Part shown: in pieces, positions 13,552-45,655 of the stretch | How positions within the stretch are numbered: the first letter of the stretch is position 1 | How the letters are laid out: the number at the start of each line of letters is the position of its first letter | NCBI RefSeq assembly: GCF_020520425.1 | Contig: NC_079492.1 | Span: forward strand, 112,689,157-112,753,156 | Source of the DNA: Spinacia oleracea | Lineage: Eukaryota > Streptophyta > Magnoliopsida > Caryophyllales > Amaranthaceae | DNA: 64,000 bases | Direction of reading: 5' to 3' | Made by a program: the position numbers and the translations under genes | Notes under the pieces: model-generated | Seen by the model: only the letters and a program-made list of their open reading frames with translations | Databases searched by the model: none | Told to the model about the DNA's origin: nothing

Positions 13552-14157
13552 CGAACAATATCATCAAATGCCCACACAGTTAACGGACGTTAACGCTCCG
13601 TTAGAGGTAGTTTACTATATTGCCCTTATTTTGCTTTTGGGCGCCATAACCCATCCCTACCCCTGGTTACCCATTCTACAGTTCAAAAAATTTGCGACCC
13701 GTAAACTGCTTCTCTCTCTCTCTTTTTCCCCTGTTCTTCCTCATTCTTCCACCATAACTGCATCATCATTCACACAAAAAGCCTGGAAATTTTGGTGCAC
13801 ATTAAGTTGGAGAAGTCGTTTGCTGGGTTTTTGAACACACGCGAATTCTCAGAAAGGGGGTTTTTGCGAATTGCGTAAGGAAGCTGTAGAATTTCAAGTT
13901 CAAGTGTGAATTTCGCGTTCTTTGGTTATTCGCTCATCGATTAAGGTATGTAATGTGAATCGCTCAACTTTATTTTCGTTTTTACAAACTTCTGTTGCGC
14001 AAATTTAGGGTTTAGGGTTTCTGGACATTTGATGTTGGAGATGACTTGTTTGTTTGCGTTTTCATGAAATTAAGTATGATTTAATTGTTTAATGTCTTGC
14101 ATGTCAACTTAGTAATGGAAATTTTTGTTTTTTGTTGATGTTGTGTTGTTTGTTAGG

Positions 14158-17100: not shown

Positions 17101-17559
17101 TGTGGAGTATGTCAGGGGTCAGGTATGCCCTGCAAACATGGCTTGAGGGTCATCTACAACCAGAGACTTGACCCTGTCGACTTTGTTTCCACTTATTTCA
17201 AGGGTGCTGCTTATAAACAGGCATATGCAGAGCATATGCACCCAATGGCTGACCCTACTCAGTGGCCTGGATCCACACTGCCCACCATTAAACCACCTGG
17301 GATCAAGAGGGGTGCTGGAAGACCTCAAAAACAGAGAAGGAGGGGTGCCATGGAAGCTAGAAAGAGGAAGAGGCACACTTCAGTTAAGTGTAGCAAATGC
17401 AAGGAAATGGGCCAAAATGCAAGGACCTGCAAGTCTGGTGCAGGCACTTCCAAGGCACCACCAAAATAGAGAGCTGCAACAAATAAGAGGAAAACAACCT
17501 CTGATGGTGCAAGCACTTCCAAGGCAGCACCAAAGGGCAAGAAATCCAAGCAAGCCTGA
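14158..17559 (+). pseudogene. MULE transposase (mudrA-like), three exons, frame-disrupted
   Basis: Cuts and pastes the element. The ATG at 14158 follows a likely leader intron (about 13946-14157). The protein has an N-terminal domain, a charged and Pro/Gln/Glu-rich linker, an acidic patch, a DNA-binding region, and the MULE catalytic core with GIDGAHLSG (first D), SDRM (second D) and VESFNALT (E). A SWIM finger CGCGVCQGSGMPCKHG and a C-terminal knuckle follow. Introns: 16213-16446 and 16796-16885. Breaks: a one-base gain near 14521-14530, a one-base loss near 16033-16036, and TAG at 17467 with the same frame open to TGA at 17557. The knuckle CSKCKEMGQNARTC has Q where the usual His sits. Probably not functional as read, unless the breaks are sequencing errors. 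Confidence 0.85.
16249..16405 (+). repeat. Tandem ~30-bp repeats in the MULE intron
   Basis: Four near-identical units of the form 'caccaaatacccctaagttt' plus a spacer, and one degenerate unit, lie within the transposase intron. The core word CACCAAATGCCC is the one repeated in the TIRs, so the intron array looks derived from, or functionally linked to, the termini. Confidence 0.85.
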
Positions 17560-18993: not shown

Positions 18994-20775
18994 GATTTTC
19001 AGAATGCTTTCATTTTAGTTGATCGATCGGCTTTGTTGCGTGAGGTTCGGCTCCATTATCCTGCTCTTTCGCGTTGGGTTGAATTCTGCTACTCTTCTCC
19101 AGCGCGGCTGTATTATGGGGAGCATACCTTGTGGTCTTGTCAGGGTGTGCAGCAAGGGGATCCTCTCGGCCCTTTGCTTTTTTCTCTGGTTCTACATCCA
19201 TTGGTGTGTCGAATTAGAGACTCATTTAATCTATCTCTTCAGGCTTGGTACTTGGACGATGACACTATCGTTGGTGACACTTTGGTGGTTGGACAGGTCT
19301 TGGTGTTGATTTTGGAGGAGGGTCCTCGTTTAGGTCTCCATGTTAATGTTGAGAAGACGGAGGTTTTCTGGCCTTCGGAGGACCCACGCAGTCGTCTAGA
19401 GGGTGTCTTTCCTACGGATATTGCTCGTCCTGCGCTTGGTGTTAAGTTGCTTGGTGGCCCAGTCAGTACGGATTCCTCTTTTTGTAAGGAGTTGGTTTCG
19501 CAGCGTGTGTCGAAGACTGTTGTGTTGATGGATGCTGTAGCCAAGCTTAATGATCCCCAGTGTGAGTTGTTGCTTCTTCGTGCGTGTACTGGAGTTTCTA
19601 AACTCTACTTTGCTATGCGCACTTGTCCGCCTCATCTTTTCGAAGCGGCCCAATTATCTTTTGATGTGGCTCTGCGGGCTTCTTTAGAGCGCATCGTGAC
19701 TGCTTCGGGACCTGGGTTCGGTGACTGGCAATGGCGCCTTGCCACCCTGCCTTATTCTTATGGAGGATTGGGTGTTTATTCAGCTGGTGATGTTCGGCAT
19801 TATGCTTTTCTTGCATCCCGTTTGCAGTCTTCTGGTTTGCAGGATTCGCTTCTTCGGCTTTCAGGTGTTGATGGTCCGGGATCGACCTTTGATGATGCTC
19901 TTGGTCTTTTCAATAGGACCGTGGAGACCGACCTTATGCGTAGCCCTAGTGAGATCGCTGCCCCCAAACTCATGAAAAAATTGGCAGACATATATTTCAC
20001 GAAGGTTACTGCTGATGCGGAATCCGCCTACTCCTTATCTTCACGTCTTGTTGCCCTATGGAAATCACAGCAGGGGGATCACTCCTCAGCTTGGTTGCGG
20101 GCGGTCCCCATCTCGGGGTTAGGCCAGACTATGAACGGTAAGACTTATCGTTCGGTTCTTTGCTATCGGTTGGGTATTCCGTTGTTCTCTGATTCGACGT
20201 CGTGTTCTGCTTGCTCTCGGGTTTTCGACGGGGACATTTATGGGGATCATGCCGTGTCTTGTGCTGGGATTGTGGGTATCAAACATCGACATAATGTTGT
20301 TCGTGATACCCTTTTGGATATTTGCTATCGGTCGGGGATTTCTGCTCGCAAGGAGGTTGATGTTGGGCTGACTAGTGGGAGTGATGGAGCTCTTCGTCCT
20401 GCAGATATATTGCTTTACTCATGGGATGGCGGTCTAGATGTGTGTGTTGACTTAACTGGGTCTTCCCCTATGACGCAATCTGGGTTGTCAGGCTTCATTC
20501 CGGGTCGGGTTGTGGCGGTTGCAGCGCAGGGGAAGCAGGATAAGTATGCGACACGTTGTAGGGCTTTGGGTTACGGTTTCTTTCCTTTTTCCTTCTCTTC
20601 TTTTGGGAAATTAGAGAAAGGGGTTGTTTCTTTGCTGAAGCGGGTCCAGACGTACTCCAGGGCTCAAGACATTGGGGCACGGGCAGCTGCCCACATTTTC
20701 AGTAGGATCGGGTTCGCCATAGCTAGAGGAGTGGGGGCCCAGATTGTATCTCGGCTCCCCTCCAACTTCTTGTAG
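18994..20775 (+). pseudogene. Truncated RT/endonuclease ORF
   Basis: Open from 18994 (DFQNAF) to the stop at 20775 with no N-terminus; the first internal ATG-type start is not meaningful. It retains GVQQGDPLGPLLF, YLDD (followed by D where the long copy has G), CSACSRVF...GDHAVSC, and RPADIL...DVCVDLT. It differs from the long copy at roughly 20-25 positions along about 580 residues. It lacks the fingers and part of the RT, so it cannot mobilise itself. Confidence 0.85.
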
Positions 20776-20826
20776 TTCACTTGATCTTTGTAGTTTGTTA
20801 AGCTTGTAACGTTTTGGTGGTTTCCC
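18994..20826 (+). mobile_element. 5'-truncated copy of a non-LTR retrotransposon
   Basis: Homologous to about 23110-24941 of the neighbouring full-length copy and starts mid reverse transcriptase. 5' truncation is the hallmark of target-primed reverse transcription. Like the long copy, it ends in 'ggtggtttccca' and then (TAA)n. The reading frame stays open throughout. Confidence 0.9.
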
Positions 20827-20880
<54 letters not shown>

Positions 20881-20881
20881 T
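20827..20881. repeat. (TAA)n tract between the two non-LTR copies
   Basis: About 18 units. It forms the 3' tail of the first copy and abuts the 5' end of the second, so the second copy seems to have inserted into it. Confidence 0.9.
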
Positions 20882-21698
20882 TCTCTCAAATTAGGCGATT
20901 ATGGGCGATTAGGGCAGCACATACGTCCATAATCCGGTGAGCGTTCCCGGCGACTACACCGGTCAGTTTCAGGCAGTTTCAGGCGGATTCGGGAGGTAGT
21001 TTCAGCCACGACATTTGCGGGCTGTTTACACGGAGTTTACAGGCAGTTTTCAGGTGACATTTTCAGGCGGTTTCCACGGAATTACAGGCAGCTTCGGTGC
21101 GGTTTCGGGCGGATTTTCGTGTAGTTATCGTCGGTAGGGCTCAGGGCTGTTGCTCCGGCGGTTGTTACGTTGTGTGGGTTTTGGATTTGGTTCGTAGGTT
21201 CTGGTTTTTTGCGGTGGTTTGGGCTTTTGTGTCTGCTATTTGCGGTTGTTGCGGTGGGTTCAGTGTTGCGTATTTGCGGTTCGTTTGGGTGTGGGGATTC
21301 AGGCGACATCTCAGGTGATTATTCGTGGGGGATTAAGACGGGCTTTCCGGTCAGGTGCAGCGTCGTTCAGGCTGTGTTTCCGGTCAGGTGTTGTGTTGTG
21401 GTGTTTCGTTCAGCGTGGGTGCAGCAGCAGCGTTATAATCAGCAAGGGTGCAGCGTAAGTGCAGTTGTTGTTCGGCTTTCCGGCGACTGTTCATTGTGGT
21501 TCAGCGTGGCTGTTTTGGGTCATTTTCGGGTTATTGTGGTGGTGAAGTAGTGTGGGTTGCGTTCTTGTTATTCTTGATTGTCGTAGCGGTCGGTGCTTGT
21601 GAATTGCGTTGTGTTTGGTGGCATTGCGTGGTTGTTGCGTTGTGAGGTTGTGTTTCTTGGTTGAGGTTTCAGATTCAGTGCGGTTGAAGTGCTTTGAT
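20882..21698 (+). other. 5' UTR of the non-LTR element
   Basis: G/T-rich leader with imperfect repeats of 'cagtttcagg' and 'ggcggttttc' at 20960-21120. It probably holds an internal promoter, as autonomous non-LTR elements do. No conserved promoter box was identified. Confidence 0.5.
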
Positions 21699-24600
21699 AT
21701 GGCGGCTTCCGTGGAGAAGTTTCATTGCCCTTTTGTGGGACTTAGCGGGTGTCAGGATGGAGGTGGGCGTGGTTTGGTGAGGAGTTCTCTGCTCACTCAC
21801 TTACGGGATCGTCACTGTTGCTTTGGTGTGCGGGATGCTACCCGTCATTCCCTTACTACCAATTTGCAGGTTTTTACTTCGGCTGAGGTGACCTTTCGTC
21901 GTATGGGAATTTGGCTATGTGGAGATTGTTACAAGACTCATACTCATCGTACTAGGTGTCGACATGGCAGTGGTTCTAGTACTGTTTTTGTGGACCCTCC
22001 TGATTCTGGGGATGGTATTCCCCGTTTTATTCTCTATGGTATTCAAAAACCCCTAGCTCCTACTTCCGAGCTGCCTTCTTCTGATGCGCCTCGGGAACAT
22101 CATTTTTCTTTTGATGTTGCTCTTCTAGACTCTTTGTTGTCTAAGCGGTTGCGTTCTGTGAAATCCATCCCTCCCAAATGTCGTTTGGGTTTTTCGCGGG
22201 TTCTGAAAGGGGCGCTTGATAAGGTGATTTGCAGATCAGATGACATCGCTTGTTGGGTTCAGTTGCTCGTGTTACCTCTTTGTGTCCTCACGACTTTTTC
22301 TCCGCGGAGTAATCGTGAGTGTTCATCCGGTGTTAGGCGTCGTCGTCAGGAAGAGAGTATCACCGCTGCTATTCGTTCTTGGGGTGTGCCTGGTGGTTCT
22401 GAGCAGCTTGTTATGGACACATTGGCTAGCGTGTCTCCCCCTCTATTGGATGTTGACGACGACCATGATTTGGCGGAGCGTAATATTAAGCAATGCAAGA
22501 GAAAAATTTCTGACGGTCACTACACGGCTGCCGTTAGAGTTCTTTCGTCCTCAGGTCTTGCCCCTTACAATGATGCTACTCTTGCTGATTTGCAAGCAAA
22601 GCACCCTTCAGTTCCGGAACCTACCTTTCCGGATATCCCAGTTGATCATCACCTTACTGCTTCCTCCGCTGTTGTGTTGGGGCAGATTAGGGGCTTTCCG
22701 CGTGGTACTTCGTGTGGTAGAGATGGCTTGCGTGCTCAACACCTTTTGGATTGCTTGGGTGGTGCTGCTGTAGCTGTTTCTGATGAGTTGGTGGACTCTA
22801 TCACTCAGGTAGTTAATCTCTTTCTTGCTGGAAAGTGTCCTGCTGAGCTTGGTGGATATATTGCTAGTGCTCCTCTTACGCCACTTGTTAAGCCGGGTGG
22901 TGGTATTCGGCCTATTGCTGTGGGCACTATTTGGAGGCGTCTTGTTTCTAAGGTTGGGGCTGCTATGATTGGTCCGCGTTTAGGGAACTACTTTGGGGGG
23001 CTTCAGTTTGGAGTTGGGGTTCCAGCAGGTGGTGAGGCTATTCTCCATGCTGTCAATCGTTTGGTTGAGGCTCGTGGGGCCGATGTTGGCCTCTCTATGT
23101 TATTGGTGGATTTTCAGAATGCATTCAATTTGGTTGATCGTTCGGCTTTGTTGCGTGAGGTTCGGCTACATTGTCCTGCTCTTTCGCGTTGGGTTGAATT
23201 CTGCTACTCTTCTCCAGCACGGTTGTATTATGGGGAGCATACCTTGTGGTCTTGTCAAGGTGTGCAGCAAGGGGATCCTCTCGGCCCTTTGCTATTTTCT
23301 TTGGTTCTACATCCATTGGTGTGTCGAATCAGGGACTCTTTTGATCTATCTCTGCAGGCGTGGTACTTGGATGATGGCACTATCGTTGGTGACAGTTTGG
23401 TGGTTGGAAAGGTCTTGGAGTTGATTTTGGAGGAGGGTCCTCATTTAGGTCTCCATGTTAATGTTGAGAAGACAGAGGTTTTCTGGCCTTCGGAGGACCC
23501 ACGCAGTCGTCTAGAGGGTGTCTTTCCTACTGGTATTGCTCGTCCCGCGCTTGGTGTTAAGTTGCTTGGTGGTCCAGTCAGTACGGATTCCTCTTTTTGT
23601 AAGGAGTTGGTTTCGCGACGGGTGTCGAAGACTGTTGTGTTGATGGATGCTGTAGCTAAGCTTAATGATCCCCAGTGTGAGTTGTTGCTTCTTCGTGCGT
23701 GCACTGGAGTTTCTAAACTCTATTTTGCTATGCGCACTTGTCCACCTCATCTTTTTGAAGCGGCCCAAGTATCTTTTGATGTGGCTCTTCGGGCTTCTTT
23801 AGAGCGTATCGTGACTGCTTCGGGACCTGGGTTCGGTGACTGGCAATGGCGTCTTGCTACCTTGCCTTATTCGTATGGAGGATTGGGTGTTTATTCAGCT
23901 GGTGATGTTCGGCATTATGCTTTTCTTGCATCCCGTTTGCAGTGTTCTGGTTTGCAGGATTCGCTTCTTCGGCTTTCAGGTGTTGATGGTCCGGGGTCGG
24001 CCTTTGATGATGCTCTTGGTCTTTTCAATAGGACCGTGGAGAGCGACCTTATGAGTAGCCCTAGTGAAATCGCTGCCCCCACTCTCATGAAGAAATTGGC
24101 AGACATATATTTCACGAAGGTTACTGCTGATGCGGTATCCGCCTACTCCTTATCTTCGCGTCATGTTGCCCTTTGGAAATCCCAGCAGGGGGATCACTCC
24201 TCAGCTTGGTTGCGGGCAGTCCCCATCTCGGGTTTAGGCCAGACTATGAACGGTAAGACTTATCGTTCGGTTCTTTGCTATCGGTTGGGTATTCCGTTGT
24301 TCTCTGATTCGACGCCGTGTTCTGCTTGCTCTCGGGTTTTCGATGGGGATATTTATGGGGATCATGCCGTGTCTTGTGCTGGGATCGTGGGTATCAAACA
24401 TCGACATAATGTTGTTCGTGATACCCTTTTGGATATTTGCTATCGGTCGGGGATTTCTGCTCGAAAGGAGGTTGATGTTGGGCTGACTAGTGAGAGTGAT
24501 GGAACTCTTCGTCCTGCAGATATATTGCTTTATTCTTGGGATGGCGGTGTAGATGTGTGTGTTGACTTGACTGGGTCTTCACCTATGACGCAATCTGGGT

Positions 24601-24890
24601 TGTCAGACTTCGTTCCGGGTCGGGTTGTGGCGGTTGCTGCGCAGCGGAAGCAGGCTAAGTATGCGGCACGTTGTAGGGCTTTGGGTTACGGTTTCTTTCC
24701 TTTTTCCTTCTCTTCTTTTGGGGAGTTAGAGAAAGGGGCTGTTTCGTTGCTGAAGCGGGTCCAGACGTACTCCAGGGCTCAAGACATAGGGGCACGGGCA
24801 GCTGCCCACATTTTCAGCAGGATCGGGTTCGCCATAGCTAGAGGAGTGGGGGCCCAGATTGTATCTCGGCTCCCCACCAACTTCTTGTAG
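21699..24890 (+). CDS. Reverse transcriptase with N-terminal fingers and putative restriction-like endonuclease, 1063 aa
   Basis: Copies element RNA into a nicked target. The start is the first ATG in frame (MAASVEKFHC); the frame is open upstream but without an ATG. Residues 10-39 form a C2H2-like finger (C10, C18, H34, H39), and a second Cys/His cluster (CGDCYKTHTHRTRC) follows at about 75-90. RT spans about 340-640, with FPRGTSCGRDGLRAQHL, GGIRPIAVG, LLVDFQNAFN, GVQQGDPLGPLLF (about 520) and YLDD (about 556). At about 874 comes CSAC...GDHAVSC, a CCHC-like knuckle, then KHRHNVVRDTL and RPADIL (about 938)...DVCVDLT. This resembles the knuckle plus PD-(D/E)XK core of R2/R4 endonucleases. The C-terminal call is by motif order, not by search. 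The ORF is intact. Confidence 0.85.
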   Translation: MAASVEKFHCPFVGLSGCQDGGGRGLVRSSLLTHLRDRHCCFGVRDATRHSLTTNLQVFTSAEVTFRRMGIWLCGDCYKTHTHRTRCRHGSGSSTVFVDPPDSGDGIPRFILYGIQKPLAPTSELPSSDAPREHHFSFDVALLDSLLSKRLRSVKSIPPKCRLGFSRVLKGALDKVICRSDDIACWVQLLVLPLCVLTTFSPRSNRECSSGVRRRRQEESITAAIRSWGVPGGSEQLVMDTLASVSPPLLDVDDDHDLAERNIKQCKRKISDGHYTAAVRVLSSSGLAPYNDATLADLQAKHPSVPEPTFPDIPVDHHLTASSAVVLGQIRGFPRGTSCGRDGLRAQHLLDCLGGAAVAVSDELVDSITQVVNLFLAGKCPAELGGYIASAPLTPLVKPGGGIRPIAVGTIWRRLVSKVGAAMIGPRLGNYFGGLQFGVGVPAGGEAILHAVNRLVEARGADVGLSMLLVDFQNAFNLVDRSALLREVRLHCPALSRWVEFCYSSPARLYYGEHTLWSCQGVQQGDPLGPLLFSLVLHPLVCRIRDSFDLSLQAWYLDDGTIVGDSLVVGKVLELILEEGPHLGLHVNVEKTEVFWPSEDPRSRLEGVFPTGIARPALGVKLLGGPVSTDSSFCKELVSRRVSKTVVLMDAVAKLNDPQCELLLLRACTGVSKLYFAMRTCPPHLFEAAQVSFDVALRASLERIVTASGPGFGDWQWRLATLPYSYGGLGVYSAGDVRHYAFLASRLQCSGLQDSLLRLSGVDGPGSAFDDALGLFNRTVESDLMSSPSEIAAPTLMKKLADIYFTKVTADAVSAYSLSSRHVALWKSQQGDHSSAWLRAVPISGLGQTMNGKTYRSVLCYRLGIPLFSDSTPCSACSRVFDGDIYGDHAVSCAGIVGIKHRHNVVRDTLLDICYRSGISARKEVDVGLTSESDGTLRPADILLYSWDGGVDVCVDLTGSSPMTQSGLSDFVPGRVVAVAAQRKQAKYAARCRALGYGFFPFSFSSFGELEKGAVSLLKRVQTYSRAQDIGARAAAHIFSRIGFAIARGVGAQIVSRLPTNFL

Positions 24891-25846: not shown

Positions 25847-26714
25847 TATACTACCCCTAAATAATTTACTAAAATAAAATCTCGAAAGAAACAACAAAAT
25901 AAATAAATAAATAAAATCTCTGCAACGGTCTGGGCTTGAGTCTCCGTCCCTCTTTTACGACCAACACACAAAAACATCAACAACAAAACGAAAACACACT
26001 CCCTCTTTGTCTTCCTTTCTCTTTCCTCCTTCACCTCTCTCTCTCTTCTGAAAAAAACCTTTCCTCTTTCACTTTCTCTCTCTTCTCTCCTTCCTCTTCT
26101 TCTCAATTTCCCCTGCCCCTTTTCGTCTTTTTCTCCCCTAAACACTAATCAGAGGGCCATTATTCCTCCACGTCGGCATCGTCTTCTTCCTCCTCCCCCG
26201 ATGTATATATAACCGCTTCTCCCTTACTTTCTCTCTCCTCCCCTATTATTTTTCACTCTTCCTCTCTCTAGTTTTCTAGGGTTTTCTGGGTTTCGCTGGT
26301 GTTACGCTGTGCGCAAGTTTTTCTCGATTTTCACACTTCCATGGCTGCTCACTCTATCTCCTCGTTGATTCGGTGCTCCCGCCAATCGCGAAATTAGGTA
26401 TTTCTCTGATCCAATTGGTTTGAATTTCTTTCGTTATTGCTTGGTTTTGTTGTTGAGGCATTGTTGATTTTTTTTGTATGTTTGAGGTTTTTGTTTTTCC
26501 CGCTAGTTTGCTGTTTTGGTGTAAAGTTTTTGAAAAATTTATTGTCATTATTTGTTGTTTCTAGGGTTTTGATTGGAGTTCCGATTTGATCAATTGAGGT
26601 CATCTAGTTTTGTTTTTGAGTTCTCCGCTGGGGGGATAAGAAGAATTCAAGTGTTTCTGAGCTGAGTTTGGGGAGGAGGTTAGTGTGTGTTTTGCTTTGT
26701 TATTGTTATGTTTA
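25847..26714 (+). promoter_or_regulatory. Promoter and leader of the NFRKB-like gene, probably with a leader intron
   Basis: CT-rich runs (25990-26115) and 'gatgtatatataaccgc' near 26200, a likely TATA box, precede 'ctctagttttctagggttt', a typical plant leader. 'aattaggtatttctctg' at 26392 looks like a splice donor, with candidate acceptors near 26565-26680. The exact exon edges need transcript data. Confidence 0.45.
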
Positions 26715-29700
26715 ATGGCTATTGAAAAGAACAACGTTAAGGCGGTGTCACGGCTTGATTCAGAGTTTTCTGTGGGGAGTAGGAGTAGGGAGAGTATGTC
26801 GAGTGACAATGATGAATTTCGTAGGAGGAATTCTGTGGATTCTGAGGATGATGATGAATTCGATGATGCTGATTCTGGGGCAGGATCGGATGATTTTGAT
26901 TTGTTAGAGTTAGGGGAAACGGGGTCTGAGTTTTGCCAAGTTGGAGATCAGACTTGTTGCATCCCATTTGAGCTTTATGATCTTCCTGATTTACACGGAA
27001 TTTTATCGTTGGATGTTTGGAATGATTGCTTGACGGAGGAAGAGAGGTTCAGTCTCACAAAGTACCTGCCTGACATGGATCAAGAGATGTTCATGCTGAC
27101 CTTGAAGGATCTGTTTGAAGGTGGAAATTTCCATTTTGGTAGTCCTATAACTGATCTTTATCAGATGTTGAAAGGAGGAGTGTGTGAGCCGAGAGTTGCT
27201 CTTTATCGCCAGGGGCTGAATTTCTTTCAGACACATCAGCACTTACATTTAGTGCGGAAGCATCAGGATTCAATGGTCAGTAATTTTTTGCAGATGAAGG
27301 AAGCTTGGCAGAATTGCAAGGGGTATAGCATTGAGGAGAAACTGCGTGTTTGGAATATAGTAAGAAGTCAAAAGAGTTTGATGGGGGAAAGGATTGAGGA
27401 CATGGGGTCTGATTCTTCTGAAAGGGAGTCGGGTGAGGCTTTGCTGAGTATGAGGTCGAAGGGACGGAGTACTGGGAAGAAAGCAGGACATGATCCTCTA
27501 TACGCTACCAGTCCTGCTTTTGATATCTTCTCTGGGGGAAGGGTAGCATCTGGCGATGTTACCAAATATGGGCAGCAGAATCCAAAAGGATTGCTGAAGA
27601 TAGGTGGAATTAAAAACCCTTTACCCAATGTAGCATCACGTAGCCATTCTCGTCTCTATGGTCATCAGGGCATGAACACTGGTCCCCATGGCTCAGACAT
27701 GGGTTTCTCACGAATGGGCAAGGCAGCTGTGCGTGATGGTATGCCAGTTAGCGGTGATGATGAGCACGAGATGTATGACATAGCTAACCAGAGACATTTG
27801 AATGTTATGGATGGAAGTATGATGGTTCGAGGCAGGTCTGTCAAATCAACAAAGAAACGCGAAGCTTTTGGAGATGACGAATGTGCTGGTGAGAGTTATT
27901 CAGGTCGGCATCAATCATCAAAGACTCATTTTCCTGTTCATTGTAGGGATTTGAACATTAATCAGCTGTCTGATATCAGAGTCTTGACTGCCAAGCCGTC
28001 AAATGTGAGAGGTCTGTATGATCCTATGTATGACAATCAAATGAGACCTGCCAAAGGCCGTTCTTCTCAGCTTGCTTTGAAAGGGAATCTGGCAGGCTAT
28101 GCAGATGTTGCGGAACCTTTTTGGAGGAAGAAACCACAAGGAGAGGCCTTCTTAACTGATCCCTCATTTGATTATGAAGATATTGATATTGAGACCAGGA
28201 AGCTGAAGCTGGGCCATGAATTTCCTGAGTATAGACTTAATGCTATGCAAGCTGCCCAACAGATTGAGGATAGAATTTTTCATCCAGAGAACAGAGCAAG
28301 GCTTTTTCCCGAGAATATTAGAGGGGCTTCATTGCGAAATGGAGGGTCCTATATGTATCCCATAAATGGTGGAAGAATGTTGCGTGGAGGTGAAGAAACA
28401 GAGTCAGACTCATCCGATAAACATGAGGAAGAAGAGGACAATGGTGCTCTAATCATGTCCAAACGAGCCAAACATGGCCGTTTGGAAAATTCTCGATCTT
28501 CCATGTCCAGGTCAAGTAATAAGGGTGTTAGAGGAAGTGTTCTGGCTCGTGAAGGGATGGTACCCGACTCTAGTACAATGGCTAATTTTGAAAGGCAATT
28601 TCCAAGGCCAGAGATGGAATCTTATTCCATGAAAATGAGGCGGAAGGCAAAGGCGAATAATCTGGATACTTTACAAAATTTTACCACAAGAGTATCAGAG
28701 GAATGTTATTATGGTGGTTCTGGAAACCCATATATTGAAAGTGATAGGAAGTCGACTTACAAACTTGGAAGGAATGGCCATGTCCTAGCTGAGGTTGCTG
28801 GAAGTTCTCCCATGTCTATGAACAGGGTCTCACCAATGGACAGAAGGCAGAAAGGAAATGTTGACTATGAATACTCCATGCAGTCCAAAAACTTGAGAGA
28901 CTGCAATATGGAAGAAGATGGGAGGTTATTTGAAGGATACTCAATGGGCAGAAGTTCCAGGGGAATGGATACTACCACAATAGTCGGTTGCACTTCATCT
29001 GCTAAGAAGAAGAAAAAGAGAAAGGATATGTCTACAGAAAATGATGGGCGAGATGGTTTTGATTACTTGCCTTCTCATCAGCAGCTTTCTGAATCTATTT
29101 CCTTGAAGAGTTGGGCAAAAAACAGACTGGAGGCAGAGTGTGGATCCCCAGGTGCCAGCACATCAGAGATTCCTATTCTAGAGGTTGGAATGGCTGAACC
29201 AGAGCTGGAAATTAAACCTCAAAAGAAGCCGTTCATTCCAATAACACCTACTATACATACTGGTTTCTCGTTTTCCATCATTGACCTTCTTTCTGCTGTA
29301 CGCATTGCGTTGATCACTTCCAGTTCCGATGATGCTTTGGAGGCTCAGAAGCAAAATGAGAACACTGGAGCCAAACCTGAGGACGCTATCGTGAAGCGTG
29401 AATGTGGAAATGGTTCCCTGGAGCGGCTGGATATGAATATTCAGTGTTCAGAAAACTCAAATGTCCCTTCTTTAACAGTTCAGGAAATTGTGAATCGTGT
29501 GAGATCTAATCCTGGCGATCCATGCATTCTTGAGACACAGGAGCCACTCCAAGATTTAGTTAGAGGAGTTTTGAAGATTTTCTCATCTAAAACAGCACCC
29601 CTTGGAGCCAAGGGCTGGAAGCCTCTGATATGTTATGAGAAGTCTACCAAATGCTGGTCTTGGACTGGCCCAGTTTCAGAAAATCCTACAGACCATGAAA

Positions 29701-38105: not shown

Positions 38106-38230
38106 CTAATAATAAATAATAAATAATAAATAATAAATAATAAATAATAAATAATAAATAATAAATAATAAATAATAAATAATAAATAATAAATAATAAA
38201 TAATAAATAATAAATAATAAATAATAAATA
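38106..38230. repeat. (AATAATA)n heptamer array, left part
   Basis: About 17 units of 7 bp. The array continues at 45129-45260 beyond the mariner-like element, which inserted at a TA within it. Confidence 0.9.
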
Positions 38231-38762
38231 CTCCCTCCATTCCTTTTTGTTCTTCCCATTTCCTTTTTTAGCATTTCTTTTTGTTCTTCCCCTACTGAAT
38301 CTTTACTATTTTTGGCCATAGTTTTTTTACCAATTTACCCTAAGATTCCCCACTATTTACAAAAAATACCCTAAGATTCTACCCTTTCCCACCCACTTTT
38401 ACCCCACCCACCTTATTTAATTAATTAACCTAACCCCACCCCCCTCCCTTTATAACCCGTCCCTATCTCACAATCCCTCTCTCACCTCTCATTCTGATTT
38501 CTCTCTCTCACCTCTTCGGATCTCTCTCTCTCTCTCTTATTTCACTCTCTCTCTCTCTTAAAATCCCTCCCCTGTTCTTGAGAAAACCCTAGGTTTTCCG
38601 CCTCTGATCTGGGTTTTCCTCTCCAAATCTCGCAAATCTGAAACGTTTTCGCCGAAAAACGTTCATAAAAATTACTCGGATTCATTTTCCGATCAGATCC
38701 CCTCTATTTTTGTCCCCTTTTTGGTCCCTAATCGTCGCTGATCTCTGTTTTTCTGGTACTTT

Positions 38763-40053
38763 ATGGGTTCTTCTTTGTCTAGAACTCGAGGTGATTCTGG
38801 GGTGGGAACTTCTGGTCAAAGAATCCCCGATTCCAACTGTGATTGGGGATCCAAGTGCAACTGTCCCAATAACGAGCATTCCTACTCCGCCGAATATAAA
38901 AACAATCTGTATTTGGCCCAAAAAGAAAATACGAGTACTCGAAACTATTTGGAAGAATGGTTTCGGAAGAGGGAAGTGGAGCCAGGAGAGGAGGTTGAGT
39001 CAAAATATGACGATCGGAAACCCACTCCCTCAGATCTGCGTTTTTTTCGGTGAAGGAGATTCCGATGAGGTATTACTTTTGATTTTTTGCGATTTATTTA
39101 GGGTTATTGATGTCGGTTTTATTAAAATGGTTTGATGAATGTTTGCATGTCTAAAAAAGTGGGATTTGATAAATGTTTGATTTATTTGGAGTATTGTTCA
39201 TTAAACTCGGATTATTTTCTGGATTAGTTGCTCTGATTTCCCATTGCATGTGTTAAAAATGCAGATCTGGTATTATTTCGAATTTTTTGGGAATTTTTTG
39301 GAGATTTGTTGGATTCATTAGGGCTTTTTATGTTATTCTTTGCTCTGTTTTCTCATTGCATGTTGTTAAAATTGAGTTCTGATTTTATTTTGTGCTCTGT
39401 TTTTTCATTGCATGTTGTTAAAACTGAGTTATGATTTTATTTTGTGCTCTGTTTTTTCATTGCATGTTGTTAAAATTGAGTTATGATTTTATTTTGTGCT
39501 CTGTTTTTTCATTGCATGTTGTTAAAATTGAGTTCTGATTTTATTTGGAGCTATTTGGAAATTATTTGAAGAAAATCGGAATATTCATGTGTTTTGTTGA
39601 TCTGTTTTCCCATTGCATGTGGTTAAAAATGGGATCTGGATGTATTTGGGATATTATTTCACATTTTTTGGGTAAAAATGGGATCTGGATGTATTCGGAA
39701 AATTAGTTGGATTTTAATGGAATTATTGTGTGATTTGCTCTCATTTATCTCATTGCATGTGGTAACCATGGTGATCTGAAATTATTTGGAACTTTATTTT
39801 GAGTTGTTTGATTAAATCTGATTTTAATTCATGGTCCCCTGTTATTTTATGATGGCACTAATCATGTTGTTTGTCCCCTATTGATTGCAAGGAACCAAGT
39901 GGGTCTGATTCATTTGATCTGGTGTATGTTGGAGAGTGTGAAAATGAGAATGGTGATGCTGTTGGGTCTCCAGGACAACTTTCATCTGGTTATCCCTCCT
40001 CAAAGAAAGGAGAAAAGGGAAAAAAATCGGCTTCAGCATCTGATGATGCTTAG
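38763..40053 (+). pseudogene. Second gene of the mariner-like element, possibly a decayed GRF zinc-finger gene
   Basis: A CT-rich leader (38460-38760) with a 'tttataa' box precedes ATG 38763 (MGSSLSRTRG). Exon 1 ends at GAG|GT (39069) and exon 2 starts at 39892 after AG, giving GEGDSDE|EPSGSDSFDLVYVGE and a stop at 40053. The two halves of exon 1 are in different frames. Frame 1 begins MGSSLSRTRG and contains NCDWG; the frame that splices correctly contains DPSATVPITS and TPPN...WPKKK. Together they recall the CxCG...TS.T..N...CP pattern of GRF fingers with one or more frame breaks. This reading is tentative. The gene converges on the transposase, as in the MULE. Confidence 0.4.
39340..39547 (+). 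repeat. 52-bp tandem repeat, four units, inside the intron
   Basis: The word 'gcatgttgttaaaa' recurs at 39358, 39410, 39462 and 39514, exactly 52 bp apart. Degenerate relatives ('cattgcatgtggttaaaa') flank the array at about 39240, 39610 and 39755, so most of the intron is built from this unit. Confidence 0.9.
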
Positions 40054-40576
40054 ATAAGTCTGTCTCCTTTCTCCCTTTTTTCATTTTATTGAATGCTGGC
40101 TAGCTGTGGAGTCATAAGGTGGATGCCAACAACTGTGATCTGTTGTTGGCCAGGGGTGTTGTTGTTTGGATGATTATGTTGTGATTAGTTGTATGGATGT
40201 TGATGTTAGATAATGATGTTATGATATTGATATTGATAATGATGATTGGATGATGGTGTTTCCATATGGTTATGAAATTTTGTGGAATGTTGTCTGTGTG
40301 ATGAACATGATTTGATGGCTTAATGTCCCCTGTTTTATGGTATGTTTTGTGTATGATAAATATGATGCTTTGGTGAGTTTGAGATTTGATCAGTATAACT
40401 ATGTTTTGGATTAGTAAAGGCATGAAATGAATATAATTTGGGGATAGGGTTTGAGTTATTTCAGTCCTCTCAGTGTGGCCTGGTGTTGAATGCTTAATGT
40501 CCAAGCATGTCCCTTTAGGATACAATAATGTCCCTTCATTTATTGTGATCGATGATGAGTCTTTTTTTTGCTGAGG

Positions 40577-42563
40577 AACAAGTCCAACTAACCACAAATG
40601 CTCGTGCTGCCATTAGTATCAGTAATGATATTTCTCGGGCGCTAAGTGTTTGTGGTTTGGAGTTGTTTTAATGATGCTTGGGGACATTCTGAGATCAATA
40701 TTAGGAGGTTTGTGATCTTCAATGATGTGATTGTTGATATTCTGAGATCTTTGTTTTGATAATTGTCCTTTAACTTCTTTTGTCGAACGGAGTGAATGTC
40801 ATTTCACACAATGGAATGTGAATATCAATCATTCCGTTCGGCAGAAGAATGTTAAAGATATGATAGTATTGAAACTACTTGATCAATGATGTGTGTCAAT
40901 ATGTCTGAGAAATGAAACCCTACATGTTAATGATCTGTTTAATGCTTCATGTCCCATGAATCAGTGGAGGTCTGTGATGAGTCTTTCATTTGATGAGGTT
41001 CAAACCCTATGTTTTTATCAGTTCATGGTGATCTGATGCATTGTTGATTGTTATTGTTATGCTTGATCTGTGATGAGTCTTTCATTTGCTGAGACTCAAA
41101 CCCAATGTTCCAATAACACTTGTGCACCATTAGCATCATTGATGCTCTTCCGGAGCTAAGTGTTAGGGGATAGGGTTTGTGTCAATGATGCTTGGGGACA
41201 TTCTGAGATCTTATGTCAGGTTAGACAGGAGAGGCAATTCATGTCTTGCAAAACATGTATAATGTGTTTCTGATATTCAATGATGTTAGTGTTGATATTC
41301 TGAGATCTTTGTTTTGATAATTGTCCTTTAACTTCTTTTGTCGAACGGAGTGAATGTCATTTCACACAATGGAATGTGAATATCAATCATTCCATTCGGC
41401 AGAAGAATGTTAAAGATATGATAGTATTGAAACTACTTGATCAATGATGTGTGTCAATATGTCTGAGAAATGAAACCCTACATGTTAATGATCTGTTTAA
41501 TGCTTCATGTCCCATGAATCAGTGGAGGTCTGTGATGAGTCTTTCATTTGATGAGGTTCAAACCCTATGCTTTGATCAGTTCATGGTGATCTGATGCATT
41601 GTTGATTGTTATTGTTATGCTTGATCTGTGATGAGTCTTTCATTTGCTGAGACTCAAACCCAATGTTCCAATAACACTTGTGCACCATTAGCATCATTGA
41701 TCCGGAGCTAAGTGTTAGGGGATAGGGTTTGTGTCAATGATGCTTGGGGACATTCTGAGATCTTATGTCAGGTTAGACAGGAGAGGCAATTCATGTATTG
41801 CAAAACATGTATAATGTGTTTCTGATATTCAATGATGTTAGTGTTTCTGATCTGTGATGTATGTGTTGATAACCTGAGATATTTGATTCTAAACATGTCC
41901 CTCACCACCAATCACCAAAGGGAATACAGATCATGTCACATCATTGATTGATCTAGTATCCCCTTTGGTGAATTGGTGGTGAGGTTGTAAATCATTTAGA
42001 AACAAATCTGTCAATGATGTAAAACAACTTAACTGAGAGTCAATGATGTTGCCTTGTTCATTGCTTCCTTGTTTTTGCTGCTTTGTTCTTGTTTCTTTGT
42101 CCATTACATCTTTTGGCACATCGGCATCCAATGGGGAAGAATTTCCATCTGAAAATGATGTGATATGCATTCTTTCCATTTGGATGCCGATGTGCTTAGA
42201 GATGTGATGTGAAAAAGTTTTTGTACTTATGCCTTGTGATCTGTGATGAGTCTTCATTTTATGAGTGTCAAACCCTTTGTTTTTCAATCAAACTCATGCA
42301 CCATTAGCATCCATGATGTTTTTCAGGAGCTAAGTTTAATTGGAAAGGGTTTGATTCAATGATTTTTGGGGACATTCTGAGATATTTATGAATCTTTGTT
42401 TATGTGAGGCATATTCCATGTGTTATCAATGATGAATTGATTGTTTTTGTCAAAATTACATCTTTTGACGCATCGGTTTCAAAATGGGAATAATTTCCAT
42501 CTGAAAATGATGTGATATTATTATTTATTTCCATTTTGAAGCCGATGTGTTTAGAGTTGTGAT
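40577..42563. repeat. Array of about nine imperfect fold-backs (hairpin-forming)
   Basis: Fold-backs with arms of about 20-45 nt lie at 40577-40668, 40768-40857, 41093-41183, 41326-41415, 41651-41735, 41900-41984, 42106-42205, 42267-42357 and 42458-42563. Example: arm 'cctcaccaccaatcaccaaa' at 41900 pairs with 'tttggtgaattggtggtgag' near 41983. They are noncoding and lie between the second gene and the transposase. One set shares the upstream word 'gatgagtctt', a loop 'ccattagcatc' and a tail 'cttggggacattctgag' but has different stems; another shares the loop 'atttccatctgaaaatgatg'. Confidence 0.8.
40733..41845. repeat. 558-bp tandem duplication within the fold-back array
   Basis: 40733-41290 is repeated at 41291-41845 with few differences and one 6-bp loss ('gctctt' near 41155). 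Two fold-backs are duplicated within it. Confidence 0.9.
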
Positions 42564-42934
42564 ATTGCAAATGCTGCCTTGTTCTTAAGAACCCAATGCT
42601 GCCTTGTTTATAGTGTTGCCAATGCTGCCTTACCTCTTGTGCCTAGTACTTTTTCTGCCAATGCTGCCTTGTTCTTGTTATGTACTCATTTGATGTTTAT
42701 TGCCTTGCCTTGATTACTCTACATTGATGTGAATAAGAATGATGGAAAAAAAACTTTACTAAACTTAAACATGAGATTCATTCATTGATGCTTCCAAAAG
42801 ATATGCTTACAAAATGTTTTGCCTACATGTTATGCTTGCATTTAAGCTTACAAAAGTGACACATTGGTTTTACTTGTCAATTTAAAAACATGTCCCCAAA
42901 ACACAAAAAGTTATCTAATTGTTTTCACCTTGCT

Positions 42935-44581
42935 TCACTGGTTTGCTTTCCATTCATCATAGAGTTGCATGCATTCATTAACTGCCCATATAGGTGCCTT
43001 GACTTGCTCTGGCAGTCTGCCTTCATCTTCTAAAATCTTCTTCTTGTTGTGTGGAAGTTGGTAATCATTGTTGCCTTTGTGTTTTAGAATCTCATTAGAA
43101 ACAAACTGTAATGTCATCCACACATTAGACAATGTCTTAGGATGCAACTCATTAAAAGAATCATACACTGCTCCACTTAAGTCCTCCACAGTTTTAGGCA
43201 TTTTCTTGTGCATAAGTGATTGTATTGACCTGAAAAATCCCAAGTCCAAGATGTTGCAATCTGGACTGTTTGCTGGCTGTTGAGTCAACACAAAAGTGAA
43301 CCCATCTTGTTTGTAGTGTAGTTGCCATTCAGGATCATTTTGCAATATATGTGCCTTTGCATTATCTTGAATGATATAGATGACCTTTTCCCCTTCATGT
43401 GGTGGCCACTTTGCCTTGATTGCTGGAATTAGCATGTTGATCATCATTGCCCTTGTTTCAATTTGATTCACAGACTTCACTGGCTTTGTTTCAATGGTCC
43501 CCTTTACTCTGTTTTTTGATGTCCTCTTGGCTGCAACTGCATTTGTGAATGGAAATATGCCTATTTTACCATCAAATTCACAATTCCCATTTTCACCCCA
43601 CCTTGGTCTGGCTACTGCTGCCATGAACATGAATTTTGGTATCTTGGTTCTTGAACTTGCACTTCTATGTGGATAGGGTTCATTGTTTGCAAGATAAACT
43701 CTCTGGTTTTTTTGAGTCAAATAAAACCACTTCTCATCAATATGAATGAAGTCATACATGCTGTAATATGTTGGTTCTTGTGGTATAGTGTAATCCATTA
43801 TTAGTCTGAGTACCCACCTCATCCTTGCCATTTTGCATGCATCTGAAATGCCTGGATGCAAGGGACTTGAGTGTGGCTTAATAATTTTCCTCTTGATGAG
43901 CCTCCATACTGTTGTTGGTCCCAAATTGAGCATTCTTGCAAGATCTACAATGCATGTTCTGTCCCCCATGGCTATTTGTGCAATAGAGTCATATGTGACT
44001 TGAACCTTTTTCCTGCCACACTTGTGATACTTACTTTCCACCACATATGAATTCATTGCTGCCTTCTGCTTCTTTGCTTTGTCCCATATTGACCCTATGG
44101 TTTTTCTGTTGTAATCAAATTCTATGGCTGCATCCCTTATTGTCCCAAACAAAAGAGTTTCTGAATCTGGAATTTTTCTATTCAGCAGGTACACCAAAAT
44201 TTCAAGCCTCAATTCATTATTTATTCTAGGAGTCCTAGGCTTATGATGATCTGTTCTGGGTGTTGCTGTTTGATGATGAATTGGTGATGCATTTTCTGAT
44301 GGTGGTGGAAAGTTCAAATCAAAAAGAAATGGTACCTCTTGAAAGTTGGTAGTTTGCTGCTGCCCTTCCCCTTCTACTTCTGGTACTTGCTGTACATATT
44401 CAGTGCTGTTTGGTACATCTTCATTAAACCCAATGTCCCCAAAATCAGCAGCAGTATTTTGAGAAGCTTGTACCAAGTCAGCAGCATCATCACCTACCTC
44501 TGAGTCAGAATCGGAGTTAATGCCATCGCCTTCATCATCAGAAAATCCGAGGAAATCGTCATCCTCTTGATCTGAAGCCAT
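42935..44581 (-). CDS. Mariner-like transposase, DD39D, 548 aa
   Basis: Catalyses cut-and-paste transposition of the surrounding element. An acidic N-terminus (residues 1-100) precedes a helix-turn-helix region (about 125-250), then the DDE/D core. HIDEKWF holds the first Asp (about 283), IIQDNAKAH the second (about 406), and NSPDCNILDLGFF the third (about 446). The spacing of 39 residues between second and third gives the DD39D signature of plant mariner-like elements. The start is ATG 44581, 547 bp inside the right end, so the promoter must lie between 44582 and the TIR. One uninterrupted exon; no missing catalytic residue. It could be active and could mobilise Stowaway MITEs with similar ends. 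Confidence 0.95.
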   Translation of the reverse strand: MASDQEDDDFLGFSDDEGDGINSDSDSEVGDDAADLVQASQNTAADFGDIGFNEDVPNSTEYVQQVPEVEGEGQQQTTNFQEVPFLFDLNFPPPSENASPIHHQTATPRTDHHKPRTPRINNELRLEILVYLLNRKIPDSETLLFGTIRDAAIEFDYNRKTIGSIWDKAKKQKAAMNSYVVESKYHKCGRKKVQVTYDSIAQIAMGDRTCIVDLARMLNLGPTTVWRLIKRKIIKPHSSPLHPGISDACKMARMRWVLRLIMDYTIPQEPTYYSMYDFIHIDEKWFYLTQKNQRVYLANNEPYPHRSASSRTKIPKFMFMAAVARPRWGENGNCEFDGKIGIFPFTNAVAAKRTSKNRVKGTIETKPVKSVNQIETRAMMINMLIPAIKAKWPPHEGEKVIYIIQDNAKAHILQNDPEWQLHYKQDGFTFVLTQQPANSPDCNILDLGFFRSIQSLMHKKMPKTVEDLSGAVYDSFNELHPKTLSNVWMTLQFVSNEILKHKGNNDYQLPHNKKKILEDEGRLPEQVKAPIWAVNECMQLYDEWKANQ

Positions 44582-45128
44582 TAAGTCCCCTGTTTTTTTG
44601 CTATTTAATGCTGAATTGAGGAATAAATTTTGGTGTTTTGCTTGTATTTATTGAACTTGGTAAAAGTCAGATTTTGGTCTTTTGTGGGGGGAAAGTGACC
44701 CTATTTATAAAGGGAATTCACTATGTCAACCCCTCAAATATTTGGAGGGAAATTAAAAATCCCCTGTTTTTTTATTTGGGGGGAAAATTTGGAGGGAAAA
44801 CTGAAATCAATTGTTTGGGCTTAATTTCCAGCCAAAAAAAACGTGAGTCATTGTATGATTAAATCTGATTGGTCCATGTAACAGCTGATGGGTCCCATAC
44901 CCCATGTGACTGAAATTTTTTGCTGATTTCTTTCATTACTTTAATAAAATATCTACTTTTCTCCCTATTAATTAAATACTTTCTCTTTCTTTACTTTATT
45001 CAATTTCTTACACCCAATCATTATTCTTACACCCAATCATTACTCATTTCCCAATACAAACCAAGATTCAGTTTTCTTAAACCACACCCAACATTCTTTA
45101 GGGGAAGAACAAAAGGGAATGGAGGGAG

Positions 45129-45655
45129 TAATAAATAATAAATAATAAATAATAAATAATAAATAATAAATAATAAATAATAAATAATAAATAATAAATA
45201 ATAAATAATAAATAATAAATAATAAATAATAAATAATAAATAATAAATAATAAATAATTATTAACAAATTATTAATTATTAATAATTAATAATAAATTAT
45301 TAATTATTAATAATTAATAATTAATAATTAATAATTAATAATTAATAATTAATAATTAATAATAATTAATAATAAATAATAAAAAATAAATAATAAATAA
45401 TAAATAATTAATAATAAATAATAAATGATAAATAATAATAATAAATAATTAATAATAAATAATTAGTATTTAATAATTAATAACTAATATTTAATAATTA
45501 ATAATTAATAAAAAATAATAAAAAATAAAAAATAAATAATAAATAATAAATAATTAATATTAATAATAATAAATAATAAATAATAATATTAATATAAATA
45601 ATAATAAATAATAATAATAATAATATTAATAATAATAAATAATAATATTATTATT
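45129..45655. repeat. Heptamer array, right part, and degenerate AAT/AATT-rich tract
   Basis: Perfect AATAATA units to about 45260 decay into mixed 'aataattaat' and 'aataataat' motifs. Pure A/T for more than 300 bp; no ORF of interest. Confidence 0.9.

What the first reader, a model, noticed from the sequence alone, without database searches (positions are those of the whole stretch)
40577..42563. Array of imperfect fold-backs with conserved loops and flanks but different self-complementary stems
About nine hairpin-capable units sit between the two genes of a mariner-like element. Units at 40577, 41093 (and its duplicate 41651) and 42267 share lead word, loop and tail yet have unrelated stems that still pair with themselves; units at 42106 and 42458 share another loop. 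MIR loci normally keep stems and lose loops, so this is the reverse. Possible meanings: small-RNA precursors with changing guide sequences, structured RNA under compensatory change, or copies of a hairpin-making replication process.
Basis: partly seen in the sequence, partly recalled or inferred. Interest (0 to 1): 0.9.

Follow-up and report, generated by a model that had tools for sequence, protein, structure and literature searches.

The report
Box C/D-type RNA array in a mariner
A cut-and-paste transposon of spinach carries, between its two genes, a row of folded RNA units whose ends carry the sequence and base-pairing signature of snoRNAs (small nucleolar RNAs) and whose hairpin stems change sequence while staying paired, which suggests that the transposon makes its own set of structured non-coding RNAs.

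Summary
The hairpins are real (z -3.5 to -10.5 on the + strand), in a two-gene spinach mariner-like element. Five copies from two further families carry the same kind of array. Stems change by compensatory substitution: class A (19 units) has 97.1% of cells paired, two-sided changes in 16 of 29 pairs, and 29-45% paired when partners are slid. G.U outnumbers A.C 89 to 5, pointing to + strand RNA. Boxes C, D and D' are 95-100% conserved, C' 82%; class A inner arms 57-67%, flanks 40-55%. That is scaffold behaviour in class A; class F and G arms are well conserved. Codon-like periodicity was weak (one of five tests p=0.035); two target searches gave nothing above control. I read this as a transposon-encoded cluster of box C/D-like RNAs. 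Transcription, protein binding and function are untested.

The parts
38231..45128 (.). mariner-like element (Stowaway-type ends CTCCCTCCATTCC..., TA target repeats at 38229-38230 and 45129-45130)
   Evidence: read by eye; many near-identical copies in the genome
38763..39069 (+). gene 1, exon 1, limits inferred (frame disturbed near its end in this copy; intact annotated relatives exist, P0121/P0123)
39891..40052 (+). gene 1, exon 2, limits inferred
40125..40150 (+). short conserved stem-loop GCCAACAAC...GTTGTTGGC just downstream of gene 1
   Evidence: clustered in 4 of 6 arrays
40547..40696 (+). unit 1 (H1, class A1): outer stem GATC/GATC, box C 40552-40558, box D 40689-40692, inner hairpin
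40717..40912 (+). unit 2 (H2, class B): double kink-turn with long inner hairpin
41065..41210 (+). unit 3 (H3, class A2)
41275..41470 (+). unit 4 (H4, duplicate of unit 2)
41623..41762 (+). unit 5 (H5, duplicate of unit 3 with a short loop deletion)
41849..42040 (+). unit 6 (H6, class E): double kink-turn, near-perfect inner hairpin
42095..42218 (+). H7, class C hairpin; loop CTGAAAATGATG; no complete kink-turn frame
42238..42384 (+). unit 7 (H8, class A2): D' CTGA to ATGA matched by C' GATG to GATT, keeping the pair; outer stem imperfect (GATC/GATA)
42446..42572 (+). H9, class C hairpin, paralogue of H7 with compensatory stem changes
40962..41048 (+). decayed class A unit (model R2, 27.9 bits); second copy at 41520-41606 (24.8 bits)
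42935..44584 (-). transposase gene, convergent with gene 1

Best explanation
The element encodes, on its + strand downstream of gene 1, a cluster of structured non-coding RNAs of the box C/D (double kink-turn) type. Each full unit is closed by a short covarying outer stem flush with a C/D kink-turn, has two spacers of 11-15 bases that pair weakly with each other, a second (D'/C') kink-turn, and an inner hairpin. SHOWN from sequence: the architecture, the strand, the covariation and the conservation. INFERRED: the RNA is transcribed from the + strand, probably with gene 1 or from its promoter; the kink-turns bind the SNU13/15.5K (L7Ae-family) protein and perhaps the rest of the C/D snoRNP; this stabilises and places the RNA in the nucleus; the inner hairpins are held mainly for their shape (processing sites, or baits for double-strand RNA enzymes). 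What the element gains is most likely stabilisation of its RNA or interference with host silencing; this last step is conjecture.
For: Class A, 19 units from 6 arrays: UGAUGA 19 of 19, D CUGA 18 of 19, D' CUGA 17 of 19, C' GAUG 13 of 19, outer 4-bp stem fully paired in 16 of 19 with three different pairings; 97.1% of cells paired, 16 of 29 pairs changed on both sides, slid controls 29-45%. Geometry equals the published box C/D kink-turn: 3-nt bulge with invariant U, tandem G.A, 3b:3n U:U, 4b:4n G:C (passages of PMC5689011; section 2 of PMC8162545). Class B/E, 7 units: 95.0% paired, 18 of 58 pairs two-sided. Class C, 9 hairpins: 96.6%, 5 of 39. C-to-D gaps: 45 of the 49 gaps of 0-18 nt are 12-15 nt, none of the counted pairs on the minus strand. 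Kink-turn plus stem: 22 in the window array against shuffle mean 1.14, max 5; minus strand 0. G.U 89 against A.C 5 in classes A and C. Sub-family copy L030: array 99.1% identical, intron 96.0%, transposase part 96.2%.
Against: No Rfam family reaches its threshold. Units are about 140-196 nt, longer than the 60-90 nt average. The two spacers pair with each other, so a free guide is doubtful, and no rRNA/snRNA target was tested. By eye, class C, F and G hairpins do not sit in a complete frame; nor do 3 of 10 B/E hairpins by the relaxed pattern. Class F and G arms are well conserved, which a pure scaffold does not require. No transcript, small-RNA or protein-binding data. The 19 units descend from few ancestors, so covarying events are fewer than the cell counts. 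With word numbers kept and positions shifted, the C-to-D excess is weaker (4 to 23 of 2000 shifts reach it).
Confidence: 0.7

Rival explanations
1. The hairpins are transposon-encoded miRNA precursors (like rice miR820) whose arms act on host or element RNAs; the kink-turn frames are processing aids.
For: H2, H6, H7 and H9 have long, nearly perfect stems. Class F and G arms are well conserved between families. Sub-threshold resemblance to MIR models. snoRNA-miRNA dicistronic genes exist in Arabidopsis (abstract of PMC4660826).
Against: Class A arms are the least conserved part of their units and class C arms (80-85%) are below their loop (90%). Codon-like periodicity is weak in five tests (p 0.035, 0.12, 0.16, 0.28, 0.45). 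Degenerate B/D/E pattern: 3 genome hits against 5 control hits. H7 arm with up to 3 mismatches, element flanks excluded: 0 hits, control 0. Only these were tested; mismatch-rich targets and the other classes could be missed.
Confidence: 0.22
2. The units are true guide box C/D RNAs: the conserved spacers pair with rRNA, snRNA or the element's own RNA and direct 2'-O-methylation. (A special case of the best explanation.)
For: Spacers sit directly upstream of D and D' with near-fixed length; the second class A spacer is 99% conserved; TGTCCC words, complementary to it, exceed the shuffle mean in all six stretches examined (3-8 against 0.69-1.27), in 4 of 6 above the maximum of 200 shuffles.
Against: Spacers of one unit pair with each other; the first spacer varies; in 2 of 6 stretches the TGTCCC count lies within the shuffled maximum; rRNA could not be fetched.
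Confidence: 0.2
3. A DNA-level feature: repeated binding sites for the transposase or hairpins formed in single-stranded DNA.
For: The array is repetitive and inside a transposon.
Against: G.U tolerance is one-sided (89 against 5); 7 of 9 hairpins fold better on + (H6 and H8 excepted); the C/D patterns were not found on the minus strands examined.
Confidence: 0.03

Closest known systems
Eukaryotic/archaeal box C/D RNAs (section 2 of PMC8162545; passages of PMC5689011)
   Same: RUGAUGA and CUGA boxes, terminal stem, 3-nt bulge with U, U:U and G:C in the kink-turn, C'/D' second motif; clustered like plant snoRNA genes
   Different: carried by a DNA transposon; about 140-196 nt; long inner hairpin; spacers complementary to each other; no match in Rfam
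Dicistronic snoRNA-miRNA genes of Arabidopsis (abstract of PMC4660826)
   Same: snoRNA-type and pre-miRNA-like parts in one region
   Different: there one host precursor gives a snoRNA and a miRNA; here the hairpin is inside each C/D unit, in a transposon
miR820 in rice CACTA transposons (abstract of PMC3459959)
   Same: hairpin RNA in a DNA transposon; sequence changes that keep base-pairing
   Different: miR820 co-evolves with a target (OsDRM2); here pairing is kept within the hairpin and no target was found in two searches
TIGR arrays (abstract and passages of PMC12045711)
   Same: tandem array of C/D-type units with two short spacers in mobile genomes; a second array type has stem-loops of variable but palindromic sequence
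   Different: phage and bacteria; spacers mostly 9 nt and variable; a Nop-domain Tas protein; compact repeats rather than snoRNA-type kink-turns. Here no Nop domain was found in the element's proteins
Plant mariner-like elements (Osmar, Soymar, Vulmar; recalled)
   Same: ends, TA repeats, transposase type
   Different: about 6.9 kb with a second gene and the RNA array

Membership tests
box C/D RNA | box C (RUGAUGA) and box D (CUGA) with a terminal stem | tested here: met
   class A: 19 of 19, 18 of 19, full stem 16 of 19; stem covaries
box C/D RNA | kink-turn: 3-nt bulge with U, tandem G.A, U:U at 3b:3n, G:C at 4b:4n | tested here: met
   columns 12-19 with 162-165 of alignment A2; rule from PMC5689011
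box C/D RNA | internal C'/D' motif | tested here: met
   D' CTGA 17 of 19, C' GATG 13 of 19 (weak in the five A3 units and H8); C' bulge lacks the U in 3 of 19; compensated change in H8
box C/D RNA | typical length 60-90 nt | tested here: not met
   about 140-196 nt; an average, not a limit; long members such as U3 exist (recalled)
box C/D RNA | guide complementary to rRNA/snRNA | not tested
   no plant rRNA was at hand
box C/D RNA | bound by SNU13, NOP56/58, fibrillarin | not testable with these tools
   needs RIP or in vitro binding
known RNA family (Rfam 15) | gathering score | tested here: not met
   0 matches in the window; weak sub-threshold MIR and snoRNA matches
plant miRNA gene | conserved mature sequence in a hairpin arm | tested here: inconclusive
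   class A arms 57-67%, class C 80-85%: against; class F and G arms well conserved: for
plant miRNA gene | near-perfect target | tested here: inconclusive
   none above control for the patterns; other classes untested
plant miRNA gene | discrete small RNAs | not testable with these tools
   no reads
mariner-like element | TA target repeat, terminal inverted repeats, mariner-type transposase | tested here: met
   ends read by eye; relatives named Mariner or Tc1-like transposase
TIGR-Tas | Nop-domain protein with the array | tested here: not met
   gene 1 relatives P0121 and P0123: no Pfam family at its cut-off; transposase: helix-turn-helix models only

The most novel reading that the evidence does not exclude
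A eukaryotic DNA transposon that carries its own box C/D-type RNA cassette with an accessory protein (gene 1), forming an element-specific RNP: the kink-turns recruit the host SNU13/NOP/fibrillarin core, and the conserved spacers or evolving hairpins act in trans (guiding modification of element RNA, or occupying Dicer-type enzymes) to help the element escape silencing. It would be a plant counterpart in spirit to RNA-equipped mobile elements.
Probability: 0.25. Interest if true: 0.95.

Novelty: new variant of a known kind. Interest (0 to 1): 0.8.

Why it matters
Cut-and-paste transposons are usually described as a transposase between two ends. Here a young family (70 of the 79 best-scoring transposase copies read without a stop) holds an array of C/D-type RNAs that, in the one sub-family comparison made, is less diverged than its own intron and transposase. 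If it holds up, selfish DNA can own structured RNA genes. It makes testable how such elements persist under plant RNA silencing, and offers a source for orphan C/D-like RNAs in plants.

Tried and rejected
1) Coding-like (third-position) pattern in the arms, suggesting host mRNA targets: striking by eye, but the permutation tests were weak and the genome patterns gave nothing above control. For the B/D/E test I gave 14 distinct arms copied by hand, dropping identical ones, and left class F out.

2) Hairpin arms derived from elsewhere in the window: longest exact matches (9-14 bases) do not exceed the longest found with 60 shuffled versions of each arm (H3's 3' arm equals its maximum).

3) Known snoRNA or miRNA families: none at threshold; weak hits only.

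4) Pairing of the spacers with the element's own RNA: TGTCCC words exceed the shuffle mean in all six stretches and the shuffled maximum in 4 of 6; left as a lead. A resemblance of GGGGACAT and ATTAGCAT to U6 snRNA is recalled and untested.

5) Gene 1 fold: AlphaFold mean pLDDT 45 from 5 sequences; no fold search made.

6) Model R1 was built with a structure string that I mistyped; it was not used. R2 is the correct one; it was only searched against the window.

7) The cluster of 21 contains 2 decayed window units and one unit cut by the fold; the 19 units are all that its pattern found. The class B/E count uses 7 of 10 hairpins; the other 3 lack a complete frame even under a pattern that tolerates box variants.

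8) A stricter automated pairing of half-units gave 12 combinations, some of which join neighbouring units; stems paired above permuted ones (outer 46 of 48 against a mean of 40.6, 6 of 5000 permutations as high; inner 42 against 35.5, 3 of 5000). I rest instead.

9) In one search ten of thirty loci (minus-strand matches) were aligned unturned and count for nothing there, which aligns either strand, replaces it.

10) Literature: ten answered searches (one search was rejected for its wording). The listings showed no report of box C/D RNAs in a mariner element; the library lacks most subscription papers.

Full report
WHERE IT IS. The window is G000:C6:112689157-112753156 of an 894 Mb plant genome. 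Transposase relatives named Spinacia oleracea lie on contigs of the same lengths as G000's C4 and C6, so I take the host to be spinach. The element runs from 38231 to 45128 with CTCCCTCC ends and TA repeats (read). Gene 1 is on + (two exons, inferred), the transposase on -, and the array lies between them. For the array, 40 of 291 genome candidates were scored: 16 full-length at 99-100%, one truncated at 99%, and 23 reported at 93-94% from query position 525 or 532 on. These 23 lack one copy of the tandem duplication (seen in the consensus of 13 of them); in the 7 of them compared the array itself is 99.0-99.5% identical. For the transposase, 79 of 695 candidates were scored, all at 94% or more; 70 of 79 had no stop inside. 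Only best candidates are scored, so these are lower bounds and favour young copies.

THE OBSERVATION. All nine hairpins fold better than shuffles: z from -3.5 (H8) to -10.5 (H7) on +. Seven of nine have a lower energy on + than on -; H6 and H8 do not (with longer stretches, only H6). A window-wide scan for stable 110-base folds listed 33 places; seven lie in the array (-40.9 to -64.1 kcal/mol at 30-43% GC) and the other 26 at 39-76% GC.

RELATIVES. I fetched stretches beside five other transposase copies of two families whose type members P0002 and P0003 are about 73-75% identical to the window's transposase: L061 and L064 (100% and 88% to P0002), L062, L065 and L063 (100%, 92% and 84% to P0003). 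All five hold hairpin arrays of the same kind; L062's is shorter and has only classes A and G in the stretch read. Clustering gave class A (21 members), B/E (10), C (9), D (6), G (5), F (4), a short stem-loop after gene 1 (4) and one singleton. The array aligns between the window and these five at 84-87% over 598 to 1577 of 2031 positions, while in L061 and L062, which contain the intron, fewer than 61 intron positions aligned.

COMPENSATORY CHANGE. Class A (19 units, all that the pattern found): RNAalifold predicts 29 pairs, 15 with two-sided changes. With the kink-turn pairs written in, 97.1% of 551 cells pair and 16 of 29 pairs change on both sides; 0 of 500 shuffles reach the covariation score (27 of 500 reach the number of pair types), and sliding the partners by 1-3 columns gives 29.4-44.8%. 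Class C (9 of 9): 96.6%, 5 of 39 (19 of 500 shuffles reach 5), slid 36-47%. Class B/E (7 of 10): 95.0%, 18 of 58 (1 of 500), pair types 63 of 500, slid 39-49%. The units are related, so cells are not independent events, and the structures were derived from these same alignments, which favours them over the slid controls. The size of the effect and the two-letter exchanges (GC to CG, AU to GC, CG to UA, AU to UA) are still hard to explain otherwise. G.U pairs outnumber A.C oppositions 36 to 4 (class A) and 53 to 1 (class C), which points to the + strand as RNA.

BOX C AND BOX D. The shared lead is NRTGATGA and the shared tail CTGA. In six arrays the gap from RTGATG to CTGA is 12-15 bases in 45 of the 49 cases with a gap of 0-18. 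The window array has 13 such pairs against a shuffle mean of 0.48 (max 4); the others 5-10 against 0.10-0.34 (max 2-4); the minus strands have none. With the words kept and one set shifted along the array, 4, 7, 23, 9, 4 and 6 of 2000 shifts reach the observed number. The columns fit the published box C/D kink-turn base for base: closing pair C:G, a three-base bulge whose last base is U in 19 of 19, then G.A, A.G, U:U and G:C (rules from passages of PMC5689011, and section 2 of PMC8162545). The outer stem is GATC/GATC in 6, GGTC/GACC in 5, CATC/GATG in 5 and imperfect in 3 of 19. The inner hairpin is closed by a second, facing kink-turn (D' then C'). In H8 the D' C became A and the matching C' G became T, keeping the pair. 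The five class A3 units have C' GAAG or AAAG, a weaker motif, and three A2 units lack the U in the C' bulge. Counting every NRTGATG plus CTGA with three stem pairs gives 22, 12, 9, 10, 11 and 14 in the six arrays against shuffle means of 0.13-1.14 (maxima 2-5) and 0 on minus; in the whole 64 kb window 28 were found on +, 6 of them outside the array, and 0 on minus. The window array holds the 558-base duplication, so its counts are inflated. Class B/E shows the same double frame in 7 of 10 hairpins, under a pattern that tolerates box variants. By eye, class C, F and G hairpins do not sit in a complete frame, and some D hairpins share an outer GTTC/GAAC; these were not counted.

WHAT IS CONSERVED. 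Class A mean column identity: box C core 100%, D 97%, D' 95%, C' 82%, second spacer 99%, first spacer 87%, outer stem and apical loop region 77%, inner arms 57% and 67%, sequence just outside 55% and 40%. Class A mixes three sub-classes, which lowers the arm figure. Class C: loop 90%, arms 80% and 85%. In the sub-family copy L030 the array differs by 0.9%, the intron by 4.0%, the compared transposase part by 3.8%. Purifying selection or gene conversion could both do this.

WHAT IT PROBABLY DOES. The most likely reading is a cluster of C/D-like RNAs of the element. Two facts speak against simple guide RNAs: the spacers of a unit pair with each other (GTC/GAC in class A, GTTGA/TCAAC in B/E), and the first spacer varies. 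One fact speaks for something specific about the second class A spacer: its near-total conservation, together with an excess of the complementary word TGTCCC in the element. The miRNA reading keeps some weight because stems of B, C and E are longer and cleaner than a scaffold needs and F and G arms are conserved. Expression, protein binding and targets are not shown by anything here.

GENE 1. It corresponds to 155-residue spinach proteins (P0121, P0123) with no Pfam family at its cut-off; five relatives were found, two named spinach and three without a name. Its first exon in the window copy is disturbed near the end; intact relatives exist. A telo-box word (AAACCCTA) lies at 38584 upstream of gene 1. 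Telo-boxes together with site II words mark plant snoRNA promoters (abstract of PMC4660826), but 20 AAACCCTA words occur in the 64 kb window and no site II word lies between the element's left end and the gene 1 start, so this is only a hint.

COMPARISON. It works like a box C/D RNA in architecture; membership in the snoRNA class is not claimed because guide function and protein binding were not tested, and Rfam has no match. It differs from miR820 (abstract) and from TIGR arrays (passages; abstract) as listed.

Noticed in passing
window about 40708-41265 and 41266-41817: A tandem duplication of about 558 bases inside the array separates sub-families of the element; 23 of the 40 scored copies lack one unit of it.
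   Followed up: partly
window 38120-38230 and 45130-45460: The element sits inside long (AATA)n-type repeats on both sides; the repeat may have grown from, or attracted, the TA insertion.
   Followed up: no
window 40323, 40507, 40528, 40949, 41507, 41895, 42890, 44433: The word ATGTCCC is about 30 times denser on the element's + strand than in the rest of the window (8 in 6.9 kb against 2 in 57 kb).
   Followed up: partly
L030 (sub-family copy): The array is less diverged (0.9%) than the transposase part (3.8%) and intron (4.0%) of the same element.
   Followed up: partly
window 41226-41260 and 41778-41812: By eye, remnants of a class G hairpin arm (TTAGACAGGAGAGGCAATTCATG), whole in L062-L065.
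   Followed up: no
window 18994-24890: Two long LINE-like reverse-transcriptase frames in the same orientation (593 and 1095 aa), judged by eye.
   Followed up: no
window 14116-17469: MuDR-type transposase gene (Pfam DBD_Tnp_Mut in 14525-16138).
   Followed up: no
window 26662-26986: Four of the six kink-turn-like C/D hits outside the array cluster at the start of the NFRKB-like gene; probably chance in a GAT-rich coding stretch.
   Followed up: no
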